The notes under the pieces: generated by a model
What the model was told of the DNA's origin: nothing
The model's input: the letters and a program-made list of their open reading frames with translations, nothing else
Databases searched by the model: none
Made by a program: the position numbers and the translations under genes
Shown here: positions 18,327 through 18,782 of the stretch, one piece after another
Numbering within the stretch: position 1 is the stretch's first letter
How the letters are laid out: each line of letters begins with the position of its first letter
Origin: an uncultured Clostridia bacterium
GTDB taxonomy: Bacteria > Bacillota > Clostridia > Oscillospirales > Acutalibacteraceae
Length of the DNA: 64,000 bases
Reading direction: 5' to 3'
Assembly: GCA_947572385.1 (NCBI GenBank)
Contig: CANPBX010000001.1
Location: 62,001 to 126,000, forward strand

Positions 18327-18354
18327 TTGCATTTTGGGAAATATCTGGTATTAT
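18327..18354 (+). promoter_or_regulatory. Promoter of the small toxin-like gene
   Basis: TTGCAT and TATTAT with a 16-bp spacer on the plus strand. The predicted start at about 18361 gives a leader of about 195 nt with several short hairpins (for example CAGAGGG/CCCTCTG close to the gene), typical of type I toxin mRNAs. Confidence 0.65.
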
Positions 18355-18554
18355 GTCAGTAAGGAGTCCGTCAGGAAAATGGTGGACGGTTGGTGGATAT
18401 TGGCTTTGCCAAATCCCGGAGATTTCCCTTGGCTACGAAGTAGCCGCCCCCGCTGCGCGGACTACCGGGAAACTCCGCCCTCAGCAGAGGGACTGGACCC
18501 TCTGATAACATAGAAACCCGAAAGGGAATCTACTGGAAAAAGGAGGGCGTACTT

Positions 18555-18662
18555 ATGAGCGTGCCTATAGGTGATGTCCTAGGGATAATGGCTACGTTGA
18601 TTATCGGTTTTATCAACGTCATAGTCCTTCTCCTGATGGCACTGATAGACGCAAAAAAGTAA
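18555..18662 (+). CDS. Putative holin-like type I toxin, 35 residues
   Basis: A small open frame starting at ATG 18555, with a strong AGGAGG eight bases upstream and a hairpin terminator immediately after its stop. The peptide is MSVPIGDVLG..., then one hydrophobic helix (about residues 8-30, rich in I, L, V and M), and ends DAKK. This length and layout match the clostridial and bacillar holin-like toxin peptides of type I toxin-antitoxin loci. A consensus promoter on the opposite strand points into its 3' end, as expected for an antisense-RNA antitoxin. Its function is inferred; it could also be a harmless small membrane protein. Confidence 0.65.
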   Translation: MSVPIGDVLGIMATLIIGFINVIVLLLMALIDAKK

Positions 18663-18747
18663 CCGTTCCGGACCGGGGAACGGTTACTTTGATAATATAG
18701 AACTTAACTCGGGCCAGCCGTCGACCGGCGGGCTCCGCTTTTTTTCT
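18653..18747 (-). ncRNA. Candidate antisense RNA antitoxin
   Basis: From the consensus promoter at 18754-18782, transcription would start near 18747 and run leftward. It would stop at the shared hairpin, which on this strand is followed by TTTTTT (18653-18658). The RNA of about 95 nt would be complementary to the 3' end of the toxin mRNA, including its terminator. This convergent, 3'-overlapping design is that of TxpA/RatA-type systems. No expression evidence exists here. Confidence 0.55.
18659..18690. terminator. Bidirectional terminator of toxin mRNA and antisense RNA
   Basis: The GTAACCGTTCC/GGAACGGTTAC stem has TTT on the plus side and TTTTTT on the minus side. Confidence 0.85.
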
Positions 18748-18753
18748 GTCTTT

Positions 18754-18782
18754 ATTATAGACCATTCCGGCCCGTTTGTCAA
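18754..18782 (-). promoter_or_regulatory. Antisense RNA promoter
   Basis: Perfect TTGACA and TATAAT with a 17-bp spacer on the minus strand, with no protein-coding start following it before the terminator at 18659-18687. Confidence 0.85.

What the first reader, a model, noticed from the sequence alone, without database searches (positions are those of the whole stretch)
18327..18782. Complete candidate type I toxin-antitoxin locus between pyrK and a VOC gene
A 35-residue one-helix peptide gene has its own promoter, a long leader, a strong ribosome site and a terminator. A perfect TTGACA-17-TATAAT promoter faces it from the other side and has no protein gene to serve before the shared bidirectional terminator. 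Together these give a toxin mRNA and a short convergent antisense RNA overlapping at their 3' ends, the layout of TxpA/RatA-type loci. The unit is chromosomal and isolated from phage genes.
Basis: partly seen in the sequence, partly recalled or inferred. Interest (0 to 1): 0.8.

Follow-up and report, generated by a model that had tools for sequence, protein, structure and literature searches.

The report
Toxin-antitoxin gene with ring-closed mRNA
A gut bacterium carries a tiny membrane-peptide gene whose messenger RNA can pair its own two ends and is overlapped by a small antisense RNA, a layout like known bacterial toxin-antitoxin pairs, and the end-pairing recurs in many relatives.

Summary
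The locus is real and very probably a chromosomal type I toxin-antitoxin module that works like txpA/RatA and bsrG/SR4, in the genus that holds Acutalibacter. Related copies keep the 35-codon frame (no second-position change among 8 of 12 copies compared) and the antisense promoter (36 of 38 sites match 11-12 of 12 letters).

Correction: the "shared terminator" is mainly the antisense RNA's. The toxin mRNA should run on to about 18746, so the ~95-nt antisense RNA lies wholly inside its 3' end.

Addition: the mRNA's 5' leader pairs with its own 3' UTR (23-26 bp). Over 23 copies 98.7% of 598 cells pair, and G-U outnumbers A-C cells 98 to 4, so selection acts on the mRNA strand. The pairing recurs with other sequences in 28 of 35 modules outside the genus, 9 of 9 in other families and 22 of 32 Hol_Tox loci of the class and phylum; bsrG folds alike. 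The antisense 5' end is a same-sense copy of the leader, so both can compete for the 3' UTR. The peptide itself does not match Pfam Hol_Tox. Transcription and toxicity are untested.

The parts
18327..18354 (+). Toxin promoter, TTGCAT-16-TATTAT; predicted start of the mRNA near 18361
   Evidence: Conserved in full-length copies; not listed by the scan
18363..18372 (+). 5' arm of pairing helix P1 in the leader
   Evidence: Pairs with 18727-18736, probability 0.85-1.0; covariation
18381..18394 (+). 5' arm of pairing helix P2 in the leader
   Evidence: Pairs with 18713-18726, one mismatch; covariation
18394..18476 (+). Palindromic repeat inserted in the leader; absent from most copies, found alone elsewhere
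18485..18504 (+). Conserved leader hairpin CAGAGGG/CCCTCTG
   Evidence: 138 of 138 cells pair over 23 copies, 4 of 6 pairs with two-sided change (counted on insert-free copies, the window copy not among them)
18540..18546 (+). Ribosome-binding site AAGGAGG
18555..18662 (+). 35-codon ORF of the candidate toxin, one hydrophobic helix, ends in KK
   Evidence: coding constraint; relatives
18656..18690 (-). 14-bp hairpin; terminator of the antisense RNA (U-run from 18658 to 18653)
18713..18736 (+). 3' arms of helices P2 and P1; also complementary to the antisense 5' end
18711..18745 (+). Predicted terminator of the toxin mRNA (imperfect stem, seven T)
   Evidence: T-run in 32 of 33 copies; weak stem listed
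18653..18747 (-). Predicted antisense antitoxin RNA, about 95 nt
18754..18782 (-). Antisense promoter TTGACA-17-TATAAT

Best explanation
A chromosomal type I toxin-antitoxin module that works like txpA/RatA and bsrG/SR4. The toxin mRNA starts near 18361, encodes a 35-residue one-helix membrane peptide and ends near 18746. Its extreme 5' end pairs with its 3' UTR and closes it into a ring. A ~95-nt antisense RNA runs from 18747 to about 18653 and is complementary to the whole 3' end of the mRNA; its 5' end is a same-sense copy of the leader, so antitoxin and leader compete for the same 24 nt. Shown by comparison: the frame, the antisense promoter, and end-pairing under selection on the mRNA strand. 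Inferred: the ring keeps full-length mRNA stable and quiet; the antitoxin displaces the leader and makes a long duplex that RNase III cuts; the peptide harms the membrane when antitoxin runs out.
For: Coding constraint: codon-position differences 91/0/186 over the pairs of 8 copies. Antisense promoter 36 of 38 sites at 11-12 of 12, against 2 of 400 random windows. Pairing: 21 of 21 modules with 16-25 bp in the partition function, 19 of 21 better than all 200 shuffles, covariation and strand asymmetry. Independent modules: 39 of 48 at z below -3, 9 of 9; own 3' UTR preferred, mean -49.2 against -35.6 permuted. One related module encodes a Hol_Tox peptide, and the SPBc2 peptide I identify as BsrG (by recall and position) is over the Hol_Tox cut-off with the same ring fold.
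Against: No expression or toxicity data. The finding's own peptide has no Hol_Tox match, nor do 6 of 7 genus relatives at E 1 (the seventh is at E 0.47). Predicted Shine-Dalgarno accessibility does not change when the 3' UTR is blocked (0.32 to 0.30 over 21 modules), so a translational switch is not supported. Within the genus a leader hardly prefers its own 3' UTR (-48.6 against -47.3, p 0.013). In the phylum set only 12 of 21 pass. Two copies lack the start codon (L038, L039) and one site has lost the ORF, so copies are dispensable.
Confidence: 0.75

Rival explanations
1. An antisense-controlled small membrane peptide that is not a toxin, for example a regulator of a membrane protein or an antibacterial peptide, held down by the same RNA logic.
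For: Nothing here shows toxicity; peptides differ widely between modules with the same RNA parts.
Against: Related modules encode Hol_Tox peptides and BsrG, a shown toxin (reviewed in PMC6562991, passages), is over the Hol_Tox cut-off.
Confidence: 0.15
2. A mobile repeat with terminal inverted repeats: the leader/3' UTR complementarity is a DNA feature for transposition and the peptide is a passenger.
For: Scattered and tandem copies, up to 22 hits per genome; one site with and one without the module.
Against: 98 G-U against 4 A-C cells: a DNA repeat should show both alike. Both promoters lie outside the repeats and are conserved with them. The frame is constrained.
Confidence: 0.04
3. A par/Fst-type module, in which the antisense RNA pairs with direct repeats at the toxin's start region and shares a bidirectional terminator.
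For: Convergent promoters, a 35-residue peptide and a hairpin between them.
Against: par has DNA direct repeats that give complementary RNAs (PMC7472228 passages); here the repeats are inverted, so leader and antitoxin are same-sense, and the antitoxin does not reach the start codon.
Confidence: 0.02
4. A decayed module: promoters and RNA remain but it is silent or harmless in this strain.
For: The leader carries an 83-nt insertion; other copies in this and a sister genome have lost the start codon.
Against: This copy keeps start, ribosome site, both promoters and 23 leader:3' UTR pairs at probability above 0.5; three other copies carry the same kind of insert in the leader (L002, L019, L030).
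Confidence: 0.04

Closest known systems
bsrG/SR4, bsrE/SR5 and txpA/RatA of Bacillus subtilis
   Same: Small hydrophobic peptide; antitoxin RNA complementary to the mRNA's 3' end (PMC6562991 passages). bsrG folds into the same end-paired ring.
   Different: The peptide here is outside Pfam Hol_Tox; the antitoxin is short and, as predicted, nested wholly in the mRNA; the known overlaps are 100-140 bp. RNase III dependence untested.
aapA/IsoA of Helicobacter pylori
   Different: There the 3' arm masks the Shine-Dalgarno and trimming activates the mRNA; here the arm pairs with the extreme 5' end, and no masking effect was seen.
par/Fst of pAD1
   Same: Convergent toxin and antitoxin RNAs, short peptide.
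   Different: Direct repeats, shared bidirectional terminator and pairing at the start region (PMC7472228 passages) are not met.

Membership tests
Type I TA with 3'-overlapping antisense RNA (txpA/RatA, bsrG/SR4 kind) | Convergent antisense gene complementary to the mRNA's 3' end | tested here: met
   At sequence level only: promoter, terminator, model hits. The RNAs were not observed.
Type I TA with 3'-overlapping antisense RNA (txpA/RatA, bsrG/SR4 kind) | Short hydrophobic coding frame under selection | tested here: met
   8 of 12 copies compared; 0 second-position differences.
Type I TA with 3'-overlapping antisense RNA (txpA/RatA, bsrG/SR4 kind) | Peptide toxic, antisense RNA neutralises it | not testable with these tools
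   Needs expression in a laboratory strain.
Pfam PF16935 Hol_Tox | Peptide scores over the curated cut-off | tested here: not met
   No match for the finding's peptide; a related module's peptide passes at 31.0 against 23.3 bits.
End-paired toxin mRNA (hok, aapA kind) | 5' end pairs with 3' end of the mRNA | tested here: met
End-paired toxin mRNA (hok, aapA kind) | Pairing masks the ribosome site until 3' trimming | tested here: inconclusive
   Mean unpaired probability 0.32 with and 0.30 without the 3' UTR; trimming and kinetics not testable.
par/Fst | DNA direct repeats that make leader and antitoxin complementary | tested here: not met
   Repeats are inverted; leader pairs with its own 3' UTR.

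The most novel reading that the evidence does not exclude
Hol_Tox-linked toxin mRNAs across the phylum share an ancient two-helix ring closure between leader and 3' UTR, and the antitoxin is a same-sense mimic of the leader that acts by competing for the 3' UTR. End-pairing, so far described for Gram-negative toxins, would then be a general control of a common Gram-positive type I family.
Probability: 0.5. Interest if true: 0.7.

Novelty: new member of a known kind. Interest (0 to 1): 0.5.

Why it matters
It adds a large, unannotated set of type I modules in gut Clostridia and a covariation-backed model of the whole transcript. If the ring is general, one RNA model would reach loci that protein models miss (59 of 200 family genomes hit by the RNA model), and the role of the ring can be tested directly in bsrG or bsrE of B. 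subtilis.

Tried and rejected
Direct repeats as in par: rejected, the repeats are inverted. Translational switch by freeing the ribosome site: no change on average. Competing leader helices that pair with the ribosome site were seen in single folds (L023) and not counted over copies. The first hairpin as end of the mRNA: disfavoured. No useful match of the finding's peptide in Pfam (best DUF6476 at E 0.064), NCBIfam, PHROGs or PADLOC; no Rfam match in the window. The Paracoccus hit L076 of the pattern search is judged chance: no module there.

Rows dropped. peptides: 4 of 12 copies left out (L002, L020 shorter; L038, L039 without ATG); of the 8 used, L018 has lost the stop at the family position; 6 of 44 sites (L004-, L018-, L020+, L029-, L037-, L044+) judged to be leaders read backwards and removed; with them kept, 36 of 44; 48 of the 54 hits tested; dropped L170, L185 (short contig ends), a second L179 hit, and three hits near E 0.01. 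The 40 places fetched are a choice of mostly the best hits, not all; 36 of 46 loci given (9 weaker class loci and L255 left out), 4 of these without an ORF, 32 tested; two misses (L204, L247) had a wrong ORF picked by the script and stay in the count. By group: class 10 of 11, phylum 12 of 21. Earlier, cruder versions: 10 of 14 Hol_Tox loci at z below -3, windows reaching into the ORF end; no shuffles.

Limits. Shuffles and swaps do not remove relatedness of copies. The structure counted was drawn from one copy (L037), and L003 and one L029 row are misaligned by one base there. The rows behind the promoter tally and the minus-side T count were partly chosen by those letters, so one search is the fairer count for the promoter.

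Full report
Observation. The toxin promoter is poor by consensus and rests on its conservation in copies.

Family. The 464-nt unit matches 17 of 60 related genomes by DNA, all of one genus. A covariance model of the 3' region (33 rows) hits 23 of 29 genus genomes at E 0.01, 16 of 20 good ones, with 7 hits in the own genome and 22 in G017; 59 of 200 genomes of the family at E 0.001; 36 of 147 of the order at E 0.0001 (both sets include genus members). In the window its only strong hit is ours (122.5 bits; next 20.6). No hit in viral contigs with the exact pattern, nor by protein in phages and plasmids, where such short queries may simply fail.

Peptides. Close relatives of this peptide occur in four genus genomes. 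Over all pairs of eight copies, differences by codon position are 91/0/186, with 182 synonymous and 77 other codon differences. Modules with the same RNA parts encode quite different one-helix peptides, many ending in KK. The finding's peptide matches no family. Of nine peptides of related modules, one passes Hol_Tox (31.0 against 23.3 bits) and two come near it. The SPBc2 peptide between yokL and yolA, which I take from recall to be BsrG (the record does not annotate it), passes at 34.5 bits.

Ends of the two RNAs. After the hairpin 18656-18690 the plus strand has at least 6 T in 8 in 10 of 33 copies; the later T-run passes, on a more lenient measure, in 32 of 33. Changes in that hairpin are A-C rather than G-U on the plus strand (7 to 2), which points, on small numbers, to the minus strand. 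I conclude that the mRNA normally reaches about 18746. The second terminator's stem is imperfect and its changes also look like minus-strand ones (A-C 7, G-U 0), so some copies may end at either place.

Ring closure. Leader and antisense RNA begin with nearly the same sequence in the same sense, so the leader is complementary to the mRNA's own 3' UTR. The partition function puts 16-25 bp there in 21 of 21 modules and 23 pairs above 0.5 in the window copy. The duplex beats all 200 shuffles in 19 of 21. On 23 insert-free copies (the window copy has the insert and is not among them) the 26 pairs hold in 98.7% of 598 cells, against 95.1% in shuffles and 30-49% when slid; 7 pairs change on both sides. 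RNAalifold finds them unprompted. G-U cells outnumber A-C cells 98 to 4; a DNA inverted repeat should favour neither, so the constraint is on plus-strand RNA. A local leader hairpin that uses the same 5' arm also covaries (95.7% of 161 cells), so the arm may change partners while the RNA is made; that is inference.

Independent tests. In 48 model hits from freshly fetched loci, 39 pair at z below -3: 28 of 35 outside the genus, 11 of 13 inside. All nine order-level loci returned, from six other families, do so. Over these 57, a leader's own 3' UTR ranks first in 29 and in the top three in 42; mean energy -49.2 against -35.6 (sd 0.64; lowest of 10,000 permutations -38.3). Among 32 loci found by the Hol_Tox protein model, 22 pass: 10 of 11 in the class, 12 of 21 in the rest of the phylum; own mean -52.9 against -38.4 permuted. 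bsrG folds into the same ring (ends chosen by me).

Mechanism. Shown: frame, promoter, ring. Inferred: the ring keeps full-length mRNA stable and quiet, and the antitoxin, complementary to the same 24 nt, opens it and makes a duplex for RNase III, as described for txpA/RatA (PMC6562991 passages; PMC3531473 passages). A test of ribosome-site accessibility did not support a translational switch. aapA shows that end-pairing can silence a toxin mRNA (PMC6733600 passages).

Known or new. The kind is known; this is a multicopy member with a peptide that no library used here recognises. Section 2.4 of the B. subtilis review (read) sets processing of long mRNAs in Gram-negatives against masking of the ribosome site in B. 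subtilis and does not mention end-pairing. Searches of the open-access library listed no paper on 5'-3' pairing in Hol_Tox mRNAs; most hits were seen as listings only, and the bsrG probing paper was not read. The review speaks of a 'main helix' of bsrG RNA, which may be this pairing.

Site history. In G022 the same gap between the two flanking genes holds a remnant: both promoter regions and the antisense stretch, without the leader and most of the ORF; in G010 the two genes are about 80 bp apart with no module. Gain and loss cannot be told apart.

Noticed in passing
18394-18476; also L055, L052, L064, L015 and leaders of L002, L019, L030: An 83-nt palindromic repeat inserted in the leader. 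It has 2 matches in the own genome and matches in 6 of 29 genus genomes, some outside any module.
   Followed up: partly
L029 (G018:C68): At least three modules in a row about 420 nt apart, with two different peptide types; the antisense promoter of one abuts the toxin promoter of the next.
   Followed up: no
L038 (G000:C30) and L039 (G010:C21): Sister copies in two genomes have AGG where ATG is expected; in L038 some ring pairs are also broken. Decay or an unusual start.
   Followed up: no
G017 (L189, L191) and G388: 22 and 21 hits of the 3' model in single genomes, several as close pairs.
   Followed up: no
L091 (G022) and L093 (G010): Same gene pair as in the window with a module remnant and with no module, a natural before/after comparison.
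   Followed up: partly
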